64,000 nt of DNA from Magnetococcales bacterium. Lineage in GTDB: Bacteria; Pseudomonadota; Magnetococcia; Magnetococcales; UBA8363. Position 1 is the stretch's first letter. Every line of letters starts with the position of its first letter. Positions 2,902-16,822 of the stretch are shown one piece after another. The stretch is from the NCBI GenBank assembly GCA_015228815.1, contig JADGCV010000008.1, forward strand, positions 56,463 to 120,462, read 5' to 3'. The notes under the pieces were generated by a model. The model was not told the origin of the DNA and made no database searches. It worked only from the letters and a program-made list of their open reading frames with translations. Made by a program: the position numbers and the translations under genes.

Positions 2902-5900
2902 ATGAAAAAAGGTCTCATTCTCGCCGGACGTTATGCACTCCAGCAGGAACTTGGTCAGGGTCTTTTCGGGGATGCCTATCTGGCCCATGACGAGAGTACC
3001 GGACTGACGGTCACCGTCAAGACGCTCGCCGAGCGGGTGCGCCGGGACGATCGCATTCTGGCCGACATAAAACGCAATTTTCAGTTGTTGCAAAATCTGG
3101 ATCATCCGCACATCGTCAAGATGCACGCCCTGGAGTTCGATGCCCTGACGCAGGAACATTTTCTGGTGCGGGAGTATGTTTCGGGGATGACGTTGACGGA
3201 ACATCGGATACGCAACGGGGGTGGCCGGTTGCCTTTGGCGGAAGCATTGGAACTATGCCGGCAGATTGCCTTGGCCCTGGATCATGCCCACCGTTCGTTG
3301 CTGCATCGTGATCTGAAGCCGGACAACATCCTGATCACTCCGGCGGGGGAAGTCAAGCTGATCAATTTTTGTCTGATTCCGGAACCTCTGGCCAAGGAGA
3401 TTCGTTTCGAGAACATGGTCCGGGATCTGGAATCGGCCAGCCGGATGCATGGCTACATGGCCCCGGAACAGTTTTTTGGTTTTCCGCCGCCGGGACCGGC
3501 GGCGGATCGGTATGCCCTGGCGGCCATCTTCCATGAATTGATTTCAGGCCGTTCCCCCTTCGATCAACCGGAACCGCAGGCGTTGATGCATGCTGTCTGC
3601 AACATGGCGCCGCCGCTGTTGAAGGAAGTTGGGAAACGGAGGAACCGCCTGGTCCAACTGGCGATGTCCAAGGATCCTGGAAAAAGGTTTCCTTCCGCCA
3701 TTTCGTTCATCGAGTCCCTTGAGGCGTCACCGCTGGCTCTGATGGGTCACTATGCCGGACCTTTGCTGGTGGCCCTTTTGGTGGTCGTGGTGACGGCTGG
3801 TTTGGGGTGGTACTACCGCGGACATGTCGGCGTGGACGGGTTGATGACGGCCATGCCTGGTATTTCGGCGGAGGTGACGGCGCCATCATCCCGGAGTGAT
3901 TCGCTCCGGAGTGTCGCCCCTCGGGAGGATGGCGAGGCGGTCGCGACGGTCGAACAGGGACAGACGGTCATGCTGCGGGTCGAGAGCCGACCGGGTGGGG
4001 CCCGGGTGACCCTGGATGGCAAACAGTTGGGGACGACTCCCTTGACGGTCGGTCAGGTGATTCGCGGGCGGTATGCCTTGAGGTTGGAAAAGCAGGGGTA
4101 TAACGACGTTGTGGTGGATATGGAACTGGCCGAGGATACGGTCGTGGATTTGAGTCTGGATGAAATTTTGCCGGAAGAAACGGTTGCGGCGGCTCGGGGG
4201 GGCAAGGCCGCCAAGGAAGGGGTGTCGGGAAAGGATTCCACCACGGGGGATGGGGTGCGGGATCAGGTGGCGCTTCCGCTCCGACCGGCCCAGGAATCGG
4301 CGGCAATGGAACTGGCCGGGAATGGGGCGGCTTTGTCGGAGAAAGGGGGTTCCGGGGCGGGGGCTGGCGTGAAGGAACCGACGGCGGTGGAAGATTCGCC
4401 GGTGGATCGCTCCGGCCTGTCGCGGGAACAGGGTGTTTCGACGGACGGATCGACCGTGGCCGAGGGGTCGGATGGAGGTGTTTCCGGGGCGATGAAGGTT
4501 GACTCCAGGCCGGAATCCGCGGCGGTTGGGAAAAACGGTATCGATTCGGGTGAATCTCCGGCCAGGGTGGGTGAAGGCGATCCCGAGGGGGTGAATGATC
4601 GGGAGGCGGAACGGGTGGTTTTGCCTGGGATTCCGGAGACCACCGCCACCGAGGCCATTCATGCGGCAATCTGGGGAACGGAGGTGGTTCGAGTGGCCGG
4701 TGTCGATGGCCCGGTCTCCATTCCCGAGCCTCCTCCCTTGGCGCGGCGATCCGGGAGTTCCGCCGTGGAGCCGTCGATGGCGGATGATCGGGGTTCATCG
4801 AGCGAGCCATTTCTGGAGGGCGATTCGCGGGTGAGGGGGCAAGGTGAACCTGGGCCTGTTCCGGCGCCGAAGCGTGTCCTCGCGGCGGGGGCCGATGGCC
4901 AGCCTTTGGCGGCGGCGGGAAAAGTGGCGGATGGTGATGGTGGGGTCAGCCGCATGGAGGGGGTATCCCTGGCCGAGGCCATGGGGGAGGGGATTCCTTT
5001 CCGGGACGGCAAGGGGGATGAAATGTTGCCGTCGCGGGGGGCGGTGCCGTCGAAGATTGGCGGGGATGGGGATTCCCAGGCGGCGGTTTTGCCCGACGAT
5101 CCCCGCATCCTCGGATGGCTCAAGGAGGCGGCGCGTCATTTTCGCGCCATGCGTCTGACCTTTCCCCAAGGTGAGAATGCCTTGGAGCGGTATGACGCCG
5201 TTTTGGCCCTTGTTCCCGATCACAAGGCGGCCCTGGAGGGAAAACAAAAGATTGCCGATCGCCTTTTGTCTCTGGCCGAGGAGGATATCGAGGAGGATCG
5301 TCTTTCGCAACCCGAGGGGAGGAATGCCCTGTCACGGATCGCGGTGGCGCGCCGGATCGATCCGGAAAACGCGAAATCTCTCCTTCTGTTGAAGGCGGTT
5401 GGCGAAAAATATGTCGCCCTGGCCCGGCAGGCGGCCAGAAGGAGCGATCGACCGATCGTGGAAGCCCGGCTGGCCCAGGCGGCCGAGCTGGCTCCCGAAA
5501 GCACCCTGGTGGCCGAGGCCTACCGTGATCTGCTGCAACGGGAATGGGTTCCCCAGCCTGGGCCGGCGCTGGCCGGTTCCGCGAACCCATCCGCCACGGG
5601 TGTGAATACAGAACACGATCCTGTTCCGGCAACCACGGAAAAACCTGTCGCGATTGCGGCCATTCCTCTTTCGCCGGCTCCGGGTTCCACGGGCCAACCC
5701 CCTTCGGCGGCGAAGGCAACATGGCAGGATCCGGTGACCGGCATGGAATTCATCGAAATTTCCGATGGATGTTTCAATATGGGGAACGAGGATGGCGATG
5801 CGGATGAATCACCGGTCCACAAGGTATGTCTTGACCGTTACCGGATCTCCAGACTGGAGGTGACCCAGGGGGTATGGAAAAAGGTGATGGGGGCCAACAA

Positions 5901-6447
5901 CAACCCCTCCAGGTTCAGCCAGGACGATCAACTTCCCGTCGATTCGGTCTCCTGGCTCATGGCGATGGAGTTCATTCAGCGCCTGAACGAAAAATCCTCG
6001 GTGATGTTTCGTTTGCCGACCGAGGCGGAATGGGAAAATGCCTGTCGGGCCGGAGGGACGGATCCTTATCAGTTCGGTTCCGTCATCCGGACCACCCAGG
6101 CCAACTTCAATGGTTCCCAACCGCTTCCCGGAGAGGAAACCGGTTCTTTCCGCAGGACCACGACCCTGGTCGGTTCCTTTCCTTCCAACCGTTTCGGGCT
6201 TCATGACATGCACGGCAATGTCTATGAATGGGTCGAGGATTGGTATGTGAAGGACTATTACCAGAAATCACCCCAACGCAATCCTCTGGCGAGCGATGAC
6301 AGTTCGTCGCTTCATGTCCTTCGTGGTGGGGCGTGGCACAGCAATTCGGGTAATCTGCGTTGTGGTTACCGTTATCGCGGGCGCCCTGATTTCAATAATT
6401 TTGGCAACGGCTTCCGGCTGGCAAGTTCCGTGACCGGTGGCGGGTGA
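2902..6447 (+). CDS. Membrane Ser/Thr (pseudo)kinase with PEGA and FGE-sulfatase domains
   Basis: 1181 residues. Residues 9-270 are a eukaryote-like protein kinase: glycine loop ELGQGLFGDAY, ATP lysine K40, HRDLKPDN at 135-142, APE motif present. The DFG motif at 155-157 reads NFC, so the metal-binding Asp is Asn and activity is doubtful. One membrane helix (about 283-303) places the rest outside. A PEGA domain follows (about 345-420, with GTTPLTVG), then a long low-complexity Gly/Ser/Glu/Pro linker, a helical TPR-like stretch (about 735-880), and a C-terminal FGE-sulfatase domain (about 940-1178) with FNMGNEDGDADESPVHKV and RLPTEAEWENACR. The FGE end is not DGR-like. Its partner is unknown; it may be an envelope sensor. 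Confidence 0.85.
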   Translation: MKKGLILAGRYALQQELGQGLFGDAYLAHDESTGLTVTVKTLAERVRRDDRILADIKRNFQLLQNLDHPHIVKMHALEFDALTQEHFLVREYVSGMTLTEHRIRNGGGRLPLAEALELCRQIALALDHAHRSLLHRDLKPDNILITPAGEVKLINFCLIPEPLAKEIRFENMVRDLESASRMHGYMAPEQFFGFPPPGPAADRYALAAIFHELISGRSPFDQPEPQALMHAVCNMAPPLLKEVGKRRNRLVQLAMSKDPGKRFPSAISFIESLEASPLALMGHYAGPLLVALLVVVVTAGLGWYYRGHVGVDGLMTAMPGISAEVTAPSSRSDSLRSVAPREDGEAVATVEQGQTVMLRVESRPGGARVTLDGKQLGTTPLTVGQVIRGRYALRLEKQGYNDVVVDMELAEDTVVDLSLDEILPEETVAAARGGKAAKEGVSGKDSTTGDGVRDQVALPLRPAQESAAMELAGNGAALSEKGGSGAGAGVKEPTAVEDSPVDRSGLSREQGVSTDGSTVAEGSDGGVSGAMKVDSRPESAAVGKNGIDSGESPARVGEGDPEGVNDREAERVVLPGIPETTATEAIHAAIWGTEVVRVAGVDGPVSIPEPPPLARRSGSSAVEPSMADDRGSSSEPFLEGDSRVRGQGEPGPVPAPKRVLAAGADGQPLAAAGKVADGDGGVSRMEGVSLAEAMGEGIPFRDGKGDEMLPSRGAVPSKIGGDGDSQAAVLPDDPRILGWLKEAARHFRAMRLTFPQGENALERYDAVLALVPDHKAALEGKQKIADRLLSLAEEDIEEDRLSQPEGRNALSRIAVARRIDPENAKSLLLLKAVGEKYVALARQAARRSDRPIVEARLAQAAELAPESTLVAEAYRDLLQREWVPQPGPALAGSANPSATGVNTEHDPVPATTEKPVAIAAIPLSPAPGSTGQPPSAAKATWQDPVTGMEFIEISDGCFNMGNEDGDADESPVHKVCLDRYRISRLEVTQGVWKKVMGANNNPSRFSQDDQLPVDSVSWLMAMEFIQRLNEKSSVMFRLPTEAEWENACRAGGTDPYQFGSVIRTTQANFNGSQPLPGEETGSFRRTTTLVGSFPSNRFGLHDMHGNVYEWVEDWYVKDYYQKSPQRNPLASDDSSSLHVLRGGAWHSNSGNLRCGYRYRGRPDFNNFGNGFRLASSVTGGG

Positions 6448-12651: not shown

Positions 12652-14619
12652 ATGGCAATAACCTGGCTCCATTTATCCGATGTGCATTTTACCAATAATA
12701 AAGAGTACGATCAGGAGGTCATTCTGACCGCTCTGATTGATTCCATGCAATGGTTTCGTGAGCAGCATTCATTGCGTCCGGATTTAATTTTTCTTACTGG
12801 GGATTTGGCTTATTCTGGAGAAAGAAGCCAGTATGAATCCGCTGAAAAATTTCTGGATGCTTTGATCGTCGCTACAGGGATAGACAAAGGTCGTCTTTTC
12901 ATCGTGCCAGGCAATCATGACGCGGACCGGAAAAAAGCAAGAGGATTGGCGCGCACTCTTGTCGATGACAATGATGCGAACCAGTATTTCTCTCCGGATG
13001 GTTTATTGCATCATATTTCCGATAAACAACGGGCTTTCGCTGATTGGTACAACGGCTATTTTGGCAAAAAGTTTCCGGAGGATTCCAGTTGTGGACCTGT
13101 GGAAATGATCGAGATTGACGGCTGCAAAATTGCCATTCTCCCTTTGAATAGCGCCCTTTTCAGCCAAGATGATCGTGACCAAGGAAAACTCTGGTTGGGA
13201 CGTCGTGCCCTGGATCGGGAAATTGACAAGCTGAGGCCGTTGAATGCGGATTTGAAAATTGCCCTCATCCATCATCCTTTCGATTGGCTGAACGATCACG
13301 AGAAGGCGAATATCAAAACGAAACTGGCGGATGCGGTGGACATCGTTTTGCGCGGGCACCTTCACGAAAACGACATCGAGAACACGATTGGGAGCGGTGG
13401 TTCTCTTTTCCACATGGCGGCTGGAGCTGGGTATCAAACGTCTAAATATCCCAACAGGGCGCTTTTCGCCACAGTGGAAGCCGGTCGGATCACCGTTTTT
13501 CCCATCCATTACGTCGATAAGCCGAAAGAGTCCTGGGTCCATGATACAGGCTTTTTTGCGCGGCAGCCTGGGTACGTACAAAGTTTTTCCCTGCCAAAGG
13601 TGAAAGGAGGATGTGCCGTTGTTTCTCCTTCCACAGGGGCAAAGGATAACCAATCCCTGGAAAAGGTGAGAGGAGGATGTGCCGTTGTTTCTCCTTCCAC
13701 AGGAGTAAAGGATGTCCAACAGAATCCAGATATATTTTTGAAATCAGGCACCTTACCGGAGTGGGCAGAAGCATTGGGTTTGGACCGTCATGGGTTTTGG
13801 GCGACCTTTTCGCTGGCAGGTGTCAAACAGAAAATGCGCTGGATCCCACCCGGACGGTTCTGGATGGGTTCGCCCGAGGATGAGCCGGGACGTTTTGAGT
13901 ACGAAGGTCCACGGCATGAGGTAACTATTGAAAAAGGGTACTGGCTGTTCGATACTCCCTGCACGCAAGCGCTTTGGCAGGCGGTGATGGACGACAACCC
14001 GAGTGAATTCCAAACCCCCGACCGACCGGTGGAAGGGGTAAGTTGGGACAATGTTCAGGAGTTTTTGCAACGGATCAATAACCGCCTGCCCGGCCTCGAT
14101 TTGGTTCTGCCGTCGGAGTCGCAATGGGAGTACGCCTGCCGTGCCGGTACCGATACGGCTCTTTACACCGGTGACATTGAAATCCTTGGAGATAATAACG
14201 CCCCGGTTCTTAGTCCCATCGCCTGGTATGGCGGCAACAGTGGCGTCGATTTTGAGTTGGACAAAGGGGTAGACAGCAAGGGCTGGCCGGAGAAGCAGTA
14301 TCCACATGAGAAGGCCGGGACCCACCCGGTGGGTCGTAAGGCGCCCAATTCATGGGGGTTGTATGATATGCTGGGAAATGTGTGGGAATGGTGCGCGGAT
14401 TACTGGCACAATAGCTATGAAGGCGCCCCTGTTGATGGAGCACCCTGGCTTGATGAAGGTGAAGCCGGCGGCTCCCGTGTCTTCCGTGGCGGGTCCTGGT
14501 CCGGCTCTGCGCGTCTCGTGCGTTCGGCGTGCCGCCTCAGGCGCCTTTTCGCCGCCCGCCACGTCTATCTGGGCTTTCGCTGTGCCCGAGCTCACGACCG
14601 GATGGATTTCCGGGTATGA
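12652..14619 (+). CDS. Metallophosphoesterase fused to FGE-sulfatase (C-lectin-like) domain; candidate DGR target
   Basis: 655 residues. Residues 1-290 are a calcineurin-like phosphoesterase with all metal motifs: LHLSDVHF, LTGDLAYSG, VPGNHDADR, LIHHPFDW, LRGHLHEND. A linker (about 310-370) carries a 22-residue-period tandem repeat containing GGCAVVSPSTG twice. Residues 395-650 are an FGE-sulfatase domain (RWIPPGRFWMGSPEDEPGR, LPSESQWEYACRAG, GLYDMLGNVWEWCADYW). The C-terminal stretch (14473-14589) matches the downstream paralogue except at clustered, mostly NNC codons, as in DGR variable regions. There is no signal peptide, so it is probably cytoplasmic. I infer an effector domain joined to a diversified binding domain. 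Confidence 0.85.
   Translation: MAITWLHLSDVHFTNNKEYDQEVILTALIDSMQWFREQHSLRPDLIFLTGDLAYSGERSQYESAEKFLDALIVATGIDKGRLFIVPGNHDADRKKARGLARTLVDDNDANQYFSPDGLLHHISDKQRAFADWYNGYFGKKFPEDSSCGPVEMIEIDGCKIAILPLNSALFSQDDRDQGKLWLGRRALDREIDKLRPLNADLKIALIHHPFDWLNDHEKANIKTKLADAVDIVLRGHLHENDIENTIGSGGSLFHMAAGAGYQTSKYPNRALFATVEAGRITVFPIHYVDKPKESWVHDTGFFARQPGYVQSFSLPKVKGGCAVVSPSTGAKDNQSLEKVRGGCAVVSPSTGVKDVQQNPDIFLKSGTLPEWAEALGLDRHGFWATFSLAGVKQKMRWIPPGRFWMGSPEDEPGRFEYEGPRHEVTIEKGYWLFDTPCTQALWQAVMDDNPSEFQTPDRPVEGVSWDNVQEFLQRINNRLPGLDLVLPSESQWEYACRAGTDTALYTGDIEILGDNNAPVLSPIAWYGGNSGVDFELDKGVDSKGWPEKQYPHEKAGTHPVGRKAPNSWGLYDMLGNVWEWCADYWHNSYEGAPVDGAPWLDEGEAGGSRVFRGGSWSGSARLVRSACRLRRLFAARHVYLGFRCARAHDRMDFRV
13596..13713 (+). 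repeat. In-frame tandem duplication in the linker of the MPE-FGE gene
   Basis: Two near-identical 52-base copies (13596-13647 and 13662-13713) with 66-base periodicity, separated by 14 bases. The period is a multiple of three, so the frame is kept and GGCAVVSPSTG appears twice. It probably arose by recent slippage or recombination in the interdomain linker. Only a few substitutions separate the copies. Confidence 0.85.
14473..14589 (+). other. Candidate DGR variable region 1
   Basis: 117 bases at the 3' end of the MPE-FGE gene, aligned without gaps to 15520-15636. Between the shared TCCTGG and CTGGGCTTTCGC, 15 of 23 codons encode different residues, and 13 of those 15 keep the same third base (11 are NNC in both). 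Invariant codons interspersed are GCG, GTG-CGT-TCG-GCG and CGC. This fits adenine-targeted mutagenesis of AAC codons in a template repeat. No template or reverse transcriptase is seen in the window. Confidence 0.7.
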
Positions 14620-14697
14620 ACAGACCTTTTGTCCAGGGCGTTCCCCATGGTTCGCCAAAACTCATTGCCGGCGGTGTGCTGGTAGCCTTGGCGGAGT

Positions 14698-14728
14698 CCG
14701 GGCAAAGGCGCATCGCCCGGTTTTTTTT
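14698..14728 (+). terminator. Intrinsic terminator after the MPE-FGE gene
   Basis: A CCGGGC (14698-14703) / GCCCGG (14715-14720) stem with an 11-base loop is followed directly by eight T (14721-14728). It lies 78 bases after the MPE-FGE stop and just before the ATG of the next FGE gene, so the two paralogues are probably separate transcription units. Confidence 0.8.
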
Positions 14729-14745
14729 ATCTTGAAGGCTCCGGC

Positions 14746-15648
14746 ATGTCCCTGACCTCCGCGATCGATACCTCCTGGCATCCCCTGGTCAACGGCTGTC
14801 CACCCCCCTGGGCCAGTGGCTGGGGTGAGGACCAGTGGGGCGTTTTTGTTGAAATCTCCATCGGTGAGGTCCATCAGCGCCTGCGCTGGATCCCACCCGG
14901 ACGGTTCTGGATGGGTTCGCCCGAGGATGAGCCGGGACGCTATAAATACGAAGGCCCACGCCATGAGGTAACTATTGAAAAAGGATACTGGCTGTTCGAC
15001 ACCCCCTGCACGCAAGCGCTCTGGCAGGCGGTGATGGACGGCAACCCGAGTCGTTTCAAAACTCCTGACCGACCGGTGGAAGAGGTAAGCTGGGACGATG
15101 TTCAGGAGTTTTTGCAACGGATCAATAACCGCCTGACCGGCCTCGATCTGGTTCTGCCGTCGGAGGCGCAATGGGAGTACGCCTGCCGTGCCGATACCAC
15201 CACGGCTCTTTATACCGGAGACATTGGAATTATTGGTAAAAATAACGCCCCGGTCCTTGATTCCATTGCTTGGTATGGCGGCAACAGCGGCGTCGATTTC
15301 AAGCTGGATAAGGGGGCAGACAGCAAGGGCTGGTCGGAGAAGCAGTATCCGCATGAGAAGGCCGGAACCCATCCGGTGGGCCGCAAGGCGCCTAATCCAT
15401 GGGGGTTGTATGATATGTTGGGAAATGTGTGGGAATGGTGCGCGGATCACTGGCATAATCGCTATGAAGGCGCTCCTGTCGATGGAGCACCCTGGCTTGA
15501 TGAGGGTGAAGCCGGCGGCGACCGTGTCATTCGCAGCGGGTCCTGGCTCGACGGAGCGCGCATCGTGCGTTCGGCGTACCGCTACGGGAACTTCTCCGGC
15601 AACCGCGGCGACTCTCTGGGCTTTCGCTGTGCCCGAGTTCATCCGTGA
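14746..15648 (+). CDS. Stand-alone FGE-sulfatase (C-lectin-like) protein; candidate DGR target
   Basis: 300 residues. A leader of about 45 residues with PPWASGWGEDQWGVFVEIS is followed by a full FGE-sulfatase domain nearly identical to the C-terminal domain of the upstream MPE-FGE protein (RWIPPGRFWMGSPEDEPGR, LPSEAQWEYACRA, GLYDMLGNVWEWCADHW). Identity is high through the body but collapses at clustered positions in the last 40 residues, ending LGFRCAR as in the paralogue. The cysteine pair of true formylglycine-generating enzyme is incomplete (RSAYRYG replaces the first Cys context), so ligand binding is more likely than catalysis. No signal peptide is seen. Partner unknown. Confidence 0.82.
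   Translation: MSLTSAIDTSWHPLVNGCPPPWASGWGEDQWGVFVEISIGEVHQRLRWIPPGRFWMGSPEDEPGRYKYEGPRHEVTIEKGYWLFDTPCTQALWQAVMDGNPSRFKTPDRPVEEVSWDDVQEFLQRINNRLTGLDLVLPSEAQWEYACRADTTTALYTGDIGIIGKNNAPVLDSIAWYGGNSGVDFKLDKGADSKGWSEKQYPHEKAGTHPVGRKAPNPWGLYDMLGNVWEWCADHWHNRYEGAPVDGAPWLDEGEAGGDRVIRSGSWLDGARIVRSAYRYGNFSGNRGDSLGFRCARVHP
15520..15636 (+). other. Candidate DGR variable region 2
   Basis: 117 bases at the 3' end of the stand-alone FGE gene, co-linear with 14473-14589. The ending CTGGGCTTTCGC plus TGTGCCCGAG is identical in both and could be the initiation-of-mutagenic-homing stretch. Two AAC codons persist here (15589-15591 and 15601-15603) where copy 1 has CGC and GCC, as expected if the template codon is AAC. 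A strong hairpin follows at 15683. Confidence 0.7.
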
Positions 15649-15682
15649 GCCAGGCAGGCAAGCAGGCAGGAGCGGAGCAGCC

Positions 15683-15732
15683 CATGTCCGGCGTTGCCCC
15701 GGCAAGCGGAGCGCCGGGGTGCGCCGGACATG
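15683..15732. repeat. Strong hairpin downstream of candidate variable region 2
   Basis: CATGTCCGGCG (15683-15693) pairs perfectly with CGCCGGACATG (15722-15732). Inside, CCCCGGC (15697-15703) pairs with GCCGGGG (15713-15719) around a 9-base loop. No T-run follows, so it is not a standard intrinsic terminator. Phage DGR targets carry a cruciform-forming hairpin just after the variable region, and this one lies 46 bases after it, a wider gap than in the phage example. Confidence 0.75.
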
Positions 15733-15799
15733 GACTGCGGAGCGGTCAACGCGGGAAGGACCTTGAAAACTTGGCGCAACTGGAACGTCGGGAGTCGGC

Positions 15800-16822
15800 A
15801 TGACCACGGATCACGATGGTCTCTACCATCAACTCTACTCCCACCCGCGGATGATGTCGGACCTGGTCAGGCAGTTCGTCAATGAACCCTGGGTGACCGA
15901 TTTGGATCTGGAACACATGGAGCAGGTCAAATCCAAATTTCACGTTCCGGGACTGCCCAAGAGGGAAAGTGATGTCATCTGGCGTATTCCCCTCCGGTCC
16001 GGATCCGACGTCTACCTCCTGGTGCTGCTGGAATTCCAGTCCGAGCCGGATCGATGGATGGTTCTGCGAGTGATGGTGTACATGTGTTTGCTATGGCTCC
16101 AGTTGTTGCACGAAAAAAAGATCCCGACCGGGGGACCGTTGCCGCCGCTCTTTCCGGTGGTTTTGCATAATGGCGACAGGCCATGGCTGACACCGGTACG
16201 GCTGAGCGATCTGATTGGCTTGCCGCAAGGGTCACCGTTATGGTCCTACCAACCGGACGGGAAGTTTTTGCTGATCGACGAAGGCCGCTATCCGAAACAG
16301 GACCTTGAGAACCGTGACTCCCTGTCCGCCCTGGTATTCATGGTCGAGCAATGCACCAATCTCGAGGACCTGCCGGACCTGGCCAAGGCGATCATCCGTT
16401 GGCTGGAGCGGCATCCGGAATGTGTCGAACTGCGGCAGGTATTGGCCGCCATGCTTTTGAACGCAATGAATTCGCTGAGTGAGGCGCAGAAACTGCCCGT
16501 GAATGATAGGATCGATCTATTGGAGGTACCGACCATGTTGCAGACCCGAATGGAGGCATGGAAAGAAGCATGGAAAAACCAGAAACTGCAGGAATGGCAA
16601 ATGGAATGGCGACGGGAAGACGCCGCTTCCATGCTGCTTAAACAGATGGAATGGCGACAGGAAGAAGCCGCTTCCATGCTGCTCAAACAGATGCGCCGCA
16701 AGTTTGGTCAGACCCCGGACTGGGCGACCGAGAAGGTGAAGGCAGCGCATCTGGAATTGATCGAGACATGGGGTGAGAACGTCCTGTTTGCGAATTCCGT
16801 GGACGAGGTATTTTCATCCTGA
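15800..16822 (+). CDS. Rpn-family recombination-promoting nuclease / putative transposase
   Basis: 340 residues from ATG 15800 (GGGAG seven bases upstream). The N-terminal two-thirds is the PD-(D/E)XK domain of the Rpn/PF04754 family: SDVIWRIPL then VYLLVLLEFQSEPDRWM supplies the acidic and EFQ catalytic pattern. A helical, charged C-terminal part ends in a DUF4351-like domain. Rpn proteins are DNA endonucleases that promote RecA-independent recombination and often occur as many divergent copies. A perfect-frame 45-base duplication lies at 16601-16690. Unlike the second Rpn gene at 48365, it lies in the DGR-like island. Confidence 0.82.
   Translation: MTTDHDGLYHQLYSHPRMMSDLVRQFVNEPWVTDLDLEHMEQVKSKFHVPGLPKRESDVIWRIPLRSGSDVYLLVLLEFQSEPDRWMVLRVMVYMCLLWLQLLHEKKIPTGGPLPPLFPVVLHNGDRPWLTPVRLSDLIGLPQGSPLWSYQPDGKFLLIDEGRYPKQDLENRDSLSALVFMVEQCTNLEDLPDLAKAIIRWLERHPECVELRQVLAAMLLNAMNSLSEAQKLPVNDRIDLLEVPTMLQTRMEAWKEAWKNQKLQEWQMEWRREDAASMLLKQMEWRQEEAASMLLKQMRRKFGQTPDWATEKVKAAHLELIETWGENVLFANSVDEVFSS
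16601..16690 (+). repeat. 45-base tandem duplication inside the first Rpn gene
   Basis: Copies 16601-16645 and 16646-16690 differ at three or four bases and encode MEWRREDAASMLLKQ and MEWRQEEAASMLLKQ. The unit is helical and in frame, so it lengthens a coiled-coil arm before the DUF4351-like end. Confidence 0.9.

What the first reader, a model, noticed from the sequence alone, without database searches (positions are those of the whole stretch)
14473..15636. Two FGE-fold genes with DGR-style variable 3' ends
The MPE-FGE gene and the FGE gene share near-identical domains but diverge sharply in a co-linear 117-base 3' segment (14473-14589 and 15520-15636). Of 23 codons between TCCTGG and CTGGGCTTTCGC, 15 encode different residues and 13 of these keep the same third base, mostly C (pairs such as GGC/GAC, CTC/TAC, CGC/AAC, GTC/GAC). 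GTG-CGT-TCG-GCG and CGC codons stay fixed. Ordinary drift would put changes at third positions. The FGE/C-lectin fold is a known DGR target. No reverse transcriptase or template is in the window, so any DGR acts in trans.
Basis: partly seen in the sequence, partly recalled or inferred. Interest (0 to 1): 0.9.

Follow-up and report, generated by a model that had tools for sequence, protein, structure and literature searches.

The report
Hypermutated sensor genes, mutator lost
Two neighbouring genes of an uncultured bacterium, likely a Magnetococcales species, end in a stretch that varies at the sites where relatives' mutation templates carry adenine, but no matching template or reverse transcriptase is in the assembled genome and the first gene runs into the sequence that follows the template in relatives, so recombination likely cut the mutator out and would have frozen the pair.

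Summary
In detail: 15 of 23 codons differ in residue and 13 of those 15 keep the third base. The DGR reading is right about origin, wrong about the present. Sister genome G002 keeps a full cassette in the same order: long FGE target, HRDC gene, DGR-type RT, adenine-rich template (TR), short FGE target. Columns that vary among the genome's three variable repeats (VRs) of this type fall on adenines of the G002 TR: 18/20 A against 9/73 non-A, p=1e-10. The window genome has no matching TR. Its FGE-type DGR (contig C9) mismatches the window VRs at 20/73 non-A sites, against 0/73 and 1/73 for its best targets: action in trans fails. Between the window genes HRDC, RT and TR are absent (165 nt, against 1,939 in G002), and VR1 runs into the sequence that follows the TR in four relatives (84% identical to G002): likely a VR x TR recombination scar. 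G007 carries a second, weaker one. Constant VR sites of the pair now differ about as much as the gene bodies (5/66; intact G002 pair 0/73), so rewriting has likely stopped.

The parts
12652..14619 (+). Gene 1 (target 1): metallophosphoesterase-FGE fusion, 655 aa; its last 10 codons are read from template-flank sequence (tail ...CARAHDRMDFRV)
   Evidence: PF00149 residues 6-239, PF03781 residues 394-646; tail seen only in the window protein among 120 listed relatives
14488..14580 (+). VR1 core (GGSW...LGFR); diversified codons 14500-14568
   Evidence: codon comparison; adenine-column test
14569..14590 (+). Shared block CTGGGCTTTCGCTGTGCCCGAG at the position of IMH/IMH*; interval in which sequence switches from VR type to template-flank type
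   Evidence: alignments of VR and TR flanks; first template-type base 14591; role as IMH is by analogy with BPP-1 (passages)
14581..14728 (+). Scar: sequence that follows the template repeat in intact or decaying cassettes of relatives
   Evidence: 84% to G002, only match in the own genome; z 19.8-23.7 against four TR flanks, -0.5 to 2.9 against seven VR flanks
14746..15648 (+). Gene 2 (target 2): FGE domain alone, 300 aa
   Evidence: PF03781 residues 48-297; 79% to the short target of G002
15535..15627 (+). VR2 core; diversified codons 15547-15615
15677..15738 (+). Inverted repeat after VR2 (17-nt arms, 94%), in the place of the retrohoming stem-loop; none found after VR1
   Evidence: VR2-type flank shared with G002 VRs
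15800..16822 (+). Transposase_31 (Rpn/YhgA-like) gene downstream of the pair, in the same island between mutS and the kinase gene
   Evidence: PF04754 E 1.9e-25; mutS and kinase adjacent in G005 and G001

Best explanation
The pair is a set of two orphaned DGR target genes whose variable ends were likely written by a retroelement that lay between them and was likely removed by recombination between the first variable repeat and the template repeat. Shown: variation on relatives' template adenines; no matching template and no G002-type RT in the assembly; cassettes with the same gene order in relatives; VR1 joined to template-flank sequence. Inferred: a crossover within the 22-bp shared block 14569-14590 that took away the HRDC gene, the RT and the TR; that the pair no longer diversifies and now drifts at the ordinary rate; and that the proteins are FGE-fold sensors, one with a phosphoesterase effector, in a defence or conflict system.
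For: Intact cassette G002: T1, HRDC, RT, TR, T2. G002 VRs against their TR: 14/20 and 12/20 A changed, 0/73 other sites each; columns variable among the three own VRs: 18/20 A and 9/73 other for the G002 TR, 19/21 and 8/72 G006, 16/19 and 11/74 G003, 16/20 and 11/73 G007. TR flank after VR1: 125/156, 116/156, 116/150, 119/153 identical to four relatives. In 48 genomes the flank occurs six times in five genomes, four times after a TR, twice after a diversified VR (window, G007:C137). Best match of the G002 RT in the own genome is the C9 RT at 36%. Constant-site differences 5/66 for the window pair (6.9 expected from body divergence), 0/73 for G002 (11.5 expected), 1/73 for G007:C39 (25.9 expected).
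Against: The FGE body of gene 1 is sister to that of gene 2 (support 100/98), not to target 1 of G002, so the pair was also duplicated or gene-converted and gene-by-gene orthology is not simple. The own TR is unknown, so some of the 9/73 or 5/66 non-A changes could be adenine sites, and function may constrain constant sites. The assembly is a 96-contig draft; no reads were available to confirm the junction. An RT-bearing allele may exist in the population. Ectopic recombination of a solo MPE-FGE gene with a TR-T2 piece would give the same join; MPE-FGE genes without a nearby RT exist (L137 = G023:C38). G007:C137, the second scar, matches its flank less well (97/151, z 8.4).
Confidence: 0.74

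Rival explanations
1. A matching DGR still exists in cells of this organism, in the unassembled part or as a population variant, and goes on diversifying the pair.
For: 96 contigs, 99.2% complete. Dore et al. report strain variants with and without intact RT at the same DGR locus.
Against: Neither RVT_1 nor the G002 RT finds a further RT; no template-like site; constant sites of the pair have drifted; VR1 has lost the VR-type flank.
Confidence: 0.14
2. The join arose by ectopic recombination: a solo MPE-FGE gene met a TR-T2 piece of a DGR elsewhere (for instance the C1 locus, which lacks RT, TR and short target), not by deletion inside one cassette.
For: MPE-FGE occurs without an RT nearby in G023 (L137); the C1 locus, syntenic with the G002 DGR locus, lacks RT, TR and T2; the pair lies in an island between mutS and a kinase that is empty in G005 and G001.
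Against: Gene order T1-flank-T2 is that of intact cassettes; G007:C137 keeps MoxR upstream of T1 and has the same kind of join, which fits deletion within a cassette.
Confidence: 0.2
3. The C9 DGR writes the window VRs in trans now.
For: It has RT, TR and Avd-like gene, and a target on another contig (C16, 1/73 mismatch) suggests that it can act in trans.
Against: 20/73 non-adenine mismatches for both window VRs and the C1 VR.
Confidence: 0.03
4. No DGR: ordinary divergence under selection of a surface loop of the FGE fold.
For: FGE domains without an adjacent DGR share a similar C-terminal frame, for instance GGAWHSNSGNLRCGYRYRGRPDFNNFGNGFR at window 2902-6447.
Against: Differences fall on template adenines (p 9e-8 to 1e-11 over four templates) and the template flank is present.
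Confidence: 0.02

Closest known systems
Clade 5A-type cellular DGRs with two C-type-lectin targets beside a MoxR-like ATPase (Dore et al. 2024, PMC10907252; Results read, Discussion part 1 of 2)
   Same: One long target with N-terminal extension and one short CLec-only target; MoxR-like ATPase upstream in G002, G007:C137 and the own C1 locus; FGE subtype of the CLec fold; a metallophosphatase domain is listed among their targets
   Different: RT clade was not tested by a tree here; the window locus has no RT, TR or MoxR gene between mutS and the kinase, and its N-terminus is a phosphoesterase
Degenerate DGR loci of Thiohalocapsa PB-PSB1 (same paper) and partial loss of the core DGR in Treponema denticola al-2 (Nimkulrat et al. 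2016, PMC4891356; passages)
   Same: Target genes persist where RT or TR is gone; some loci vary between strains
   Different: There loss is tied to transposons, MITE-like arrays and deletions; here VR1 is joined to the template flank, which points to VR x TR recombination
BPP-1 type mutagenic retrohoming (PMC12875486; passages)
   Same: Adenine-directed variation; near-identical block at the 3' ends of VR and TR; inverted repeat after the VR (kept at VR2)
   Different: HRDC gene where BPP-1 has Avd, in the G002-type cassette; no live element in the window; the passage calls TR-VR recombination rare in the E. coli reporter
C9 DGR of the same genome (NACHT-FGE, TIR-FGE and FGE targets)
   Same: FGE targets, adenine-rich TR, RT with IGxxxSQ
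   Different: Avd-like (bAvd) accessory instead of HRDC; RT about one third identical to the G002 RT; other template constants

Membership tests
DGR target gene (VR-bearing) | Variation concentrated on adenine positions of a template, other positions kept | tested here: met
   18/20 A against 9/73 other columns with the G002 TR, similar with three more; tested with relatives' templates since the own one is missing
DGR target gene (VR-bearing) | C-terminal C-type-lectin/FGE fold carrying the VR | tested here: met
   PF03781 in both genes, VR inside its C-terminal end; no structure predicted
DGR target gene (VR-bearing) | IMH-like block and inverted repeat after the VR | tested here: inconclusive
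   block after both VRs; inverted repeat after VR2 only; block not tested for function
Complete DGR cassette | RT gene at the locus or with matching template elsewhere | tested here: not met
   genome RTs only on C9 and C10; C9 template mismatches at 20/73; C10 repeat does not resemble the VRs
Complete DGR cassette | Template repeat matching the VR at non-adenine sites | tested here: not met
   none in the assembly
Complete DGR cassette | Ongoing diversification in a population | not testable with these tools
   no reads; the 90% cluster of gene 1 has one member
Antiphage or conflict-system sensor | Effector domain related to known defence proteins fused to a diversified sensor | tested here: inconclusive
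   MPE part matches DS8_antiphage (134.7 bits, cut-off 790), DS9_1 (61.7 of 420) and PADLOC PDC-S60 (122.2 bits) over the phosphoesterase region only
Antiphage or conflict-system sensor | Measured protection or ligand binding | not testable with these tools
   needs bench work

The most novel reading that the evidence does not exclude
VR x TR recombination is a locking switch: a hypermutating sensor locus excises its own mutator at the retrohoming block and fixes a receptor pair, a bacterial counterpart of an irreversible receptor rearrangement, and the template flank left behind is a scar that marks each locked locus. Two such scars of apparently separate origin are seen here (window and G007:C137).
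Probability: 0.12. Interest if true: 0.85.

Novelty: new variant of a known kind. Interest (0 to 1): 0.55.

Why it matters
How DGRs stop, and whether hosts keep what they made, is little studied. A VR joined to a template flank can be read from a single genome without population data, and drift of non-adenine VR sites relative to gene-body divergence gives a rough clock for when rewriting ended. Together they would make loss of the mutator and retention of hypermutated sensors in putative bacterial immune systems countable across genomes.

Tried and rejected
Trans action by the C9 DGR: rejected, 20/73 non-adenine mismatches. The C10 RT lies beside an Lcl_C gene with a 160-nt repeat; the repeat is not clearly adenine-specific (13/30 A and 22/130 other sites changed) and does not resemble the window VRs. 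Terminator at the end of the spacer: the scan found none; the stem that I see by eye has an 11-nt loop. RNA structure of the spacer: 34 predicted pairs, 2 with both sides changed, six sequences: too weak to claim. Other orphan arrays (G005:C142, G001:C64, C76 and C218, G023:C74, G026:C74, G003:C109, G019:C133, G038:C136) have VR-type or unrelated flanks, not the scar. G001:C64 may keep the tail of a template spacer before its last FGE gene (scores 50 and 57 against the two G007 sequences, shuffled maxima 30 and 37; not above shuffles against the window; G005 weaker). The tree used 22 of 26 rows; four without the anchor motif were dropped. In one search a fixed 170-residue stretch replaced a body without the anchor motif; the rows concerned were not printed, and I believe they are the C9 rows. 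Result against a simple picture: one of C9's own FGE targets has 13/73 non-A mismatches and a C6 gene 4/73. Spacer tree support: window with G002 0.78, the two G007 spacers 1.0. Empty-site test: of the seven relatives with mutS I looked at four; G005 and G001 have mutS and kinase adjacent, G002 has other genes there, the G007 contig ends. Literature: full-text searches with recombination, deletion, orphan, degenerate or loss terms gave no description of VR x TR chimeras (one search listed 25 of 452 hits); they cover open-licence papers only.
Full report
What was checked. The window is G000:C8:56463-120462 of a 4.2-Mb draft genome in 96 contigs, 99.2% complete. In the 212 codons upstream third positions lead (35 of 63 changes); in the 39-codon 3' segment positions 1 and 2 lead (25 of 30 changes). 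Gene 1 is a metallophosphoesterase-FGE fusion, gene 2 an FGE domain alone.

Is there a DGR in the genome? Yes. RVT_1 gave two hits. The C9 hit (L040) is a DGR: bAvd gene (PF22296), template GGSWNNPASNLRVGNRNDNLAGNRNDNLGFR, RT, and FGE genes with NACHT, TIR or no further domain. Its TR fits its NACHT-FGE target at 73 of 73 non-adenine sites and a C16 gene at 72 of 73, but both window VRs and the C1 VR at only 53 of 73. A search for GTGCGTTCGGCGNNCCGCNNC with up to 3 mismatches gave 21 sites: the two window VRs exactly, the C1 VR with one mismatch, and 18 sites with three. Of these 18, 17 have no GSW or GFR in any frame nearby; the other has one AAC only and low adenine content. A pattern for adenine-rich templates hit only C9 in this genome.

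Where the writer was. A protein search with gene 2 matched 27 of 41 genomes, the own one included. One relative contig of the same genus (G007:C39, 83,640 bases) has the length and RT match of JACSDG010000007.1, Magnetococcales bacterium C5_bin.1; so the organism is most likely a Magnetococcales species. In G002 the RT lies between the counterparts of the two window genes. That locus (L106, minus strand) reads: AAA ATPase of MoxR type; 918-aa protein with C-terminal FGE and VR; HRDC gene; RT with GLPIGALTSQ and RYMDD; template GGSWNDNARNVRAAYRNRHPSDNRNDDLGFR; 301-aa FGE gene with VR. The G002 VRs differ from the G002 TR at 14/20 and 12/20 adenines and at 0/73 other sites each; four G007 VRs from the G007 TR at 9-14 of 20 adenines and 1-3 of 73 others.

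Adenine test for the window. No template of its own is left, so four relatives' templates were used. Among the three VRs of this type in the genome (VR1, VR2 and C1:18476-19240), 18 of 20 columns that are A in the G002 TR vary, against 9 of 73 others (p=9.6e-11); G006 19/21 against 8/72, G003 16/19 against 11/74, G007 16/20 against 11/73. Ten of the eleven columns with three different bases are A in at least one template.

The scar. After its VR, gene 1 does not continue like the VRs of G002, G007, VR2 or C1 (GAGTTCA...). It continues like the sequence after the TRs of G002, G006, G003 and G007:C39 (GAGCTCACGACCGGATGG...): 125/156, 116/156, 116/150 and 119/153 identical, z 19.8-23.7 against shuffles; seven VR flanks score z -0.5 to 2.9. 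In 48 genomes of the order this flank occurs six times in five genomes: after TRs in G002, G003, G006 and G007:C39, and after diversified VRs in the window and in G007:C137. Among the 120 protein relatives listed (of 3,236 found) only the window protein has the tail read from this flank. The switch falls in the 22 bp between the last diversified codon (14566-14568) and the first template-type base (14591), the position of the IMH/IMH* block of BPP-1 (passages of PMC12875486). The simplest account is a crossover between VR1 and TR that removed about 1.8 kb (1,939 nt between VR1 and gene 2 in G002, 165 nt here). The G007:C137 spacer groups with the G007:C39 spacer (support 1.0), not with the window, its gene 1 has no MPE match and its gene 2 groups with G005 and G001 genes (95/91); so the two scars are probably separate events, though the C137 match is weaker (97/151, z 8.4).

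A complication. In the FGE-body tree gene 1 and gene 2 of the window are sisters (100/98), ahead of G002's short target. So gene 1's FGE body was copied from, or converted by, gene 2, or the reverse. This does not touch the flank evidence, but it means that gene 1 is not a simple orthologue of G002's long target.

Other stages of decay. On own contig C1 the locus syntenic with G002 (MoxR-type ATPase, long FGE target, antiporter gene named by me from its sequence) lacks RT, TR and short target. In G006 the RT is reduced to about 100 C-terminal residues with an in-frame TAG, beside a good TR and near a contig end.

Has diversification stopped? Retrohoming rewrites VRs from the TR, so constant sites of two VRs should stay alike while gene bodies diverge. 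G002: 0/73 against 11.5 expected from body divergence; G007:C39: 1/73 against 25.9; G007:C137: 3/73 against 23.7. Window pair: 5/66 against 6.9 (P 0.30), or 7/73 against 7.6 with the G002 template as mask; four of the five differences are transitions. Window VRs against the C1 VR: 4/66 each against 12.9 and 12.6 (P about 0.002). So homogenisation reached past the split from C1 and seems to have ended about when the window pair began to diverge. This is inference: the own TR is unknown and function may hold these sites.

Context. Between mutS and a kinase gene the pair and a Transposase_31 gene form an island; G005 and G001 have mutS and kinase adjacent. The MPE part is rare: 2 of 48 genomes of the order at E<=1e-30, the other being G023, whose contig has the length of nNGHbin2's JADGAR010000013.1. 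It resembles the phosphoesterase part of antiphage proteins, far below their cut-offs. Dore et al. propose that such diversified CLec domains are antigen sensors, untested by experiment. A defence role for this pair is inference by analogy.

Verdict. Observation confirmed; origin by a DGR strongly supported; present action in trans not supported; best reading is an orphaned and probably frozen pair left by VR x TR recombination. Degenerate DGR loci are known; this route and scar I found in none of my full-text searches.

Noticed in passing
L040:6215-6340 (G000:C9, minus strand): The VR of the TIR-FGE gene of the C9 DGR aligns to the C9 TR with a 2-nt gap and its reading frame leaves the FGE frame there: a DGR target apparently broken inside its VR.
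   Followed up: partly
L047 (C16:1-3500) and L043 (C6:103000-110000): FGE genes on C16 and C6 carry VRs that fit the C9 template at 72/73 and 69/73 non-adenine sites: likely remote targets of the C9 DGR. A second C6 FGE gene has a VR three codons longer.
   Followed up: partly
L051:99-5125 (C10:105000-111000): A second RT with GLPIGNLTSQ follows a peptidase M23-fn3-Lcl_C protein, and a 160-nt stretch at its C-terminal end recurs after the RT at 78% identity: maybe a further DGR or an Lcl_C duplicate; changes are not clearly adenine-specific.
   Followed up: partly
window 2902-6447: A 1,181-aa ORF that reads like a protein kinase (by eye) ends in an FGE domain whose end lacks the VR type of the finding.
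   Followed up: no
window 15800-16822; L110:3970-5010: A Transposase_31 (Rpn/YhgA-like) gene follows the window pair, and a similar-looking gene (by eye, not searched) lies between FGE genes of G006; such nucleases are named for promoting recombination (recalled).
   Followed up: no
L238:904-1879 (G002:C118): In G002 the site after mutS holds small genes that look like a HEPN/nucleotidyltransferase pair (by eye), so the site may be an insertion hot spot.
   Followed up: no
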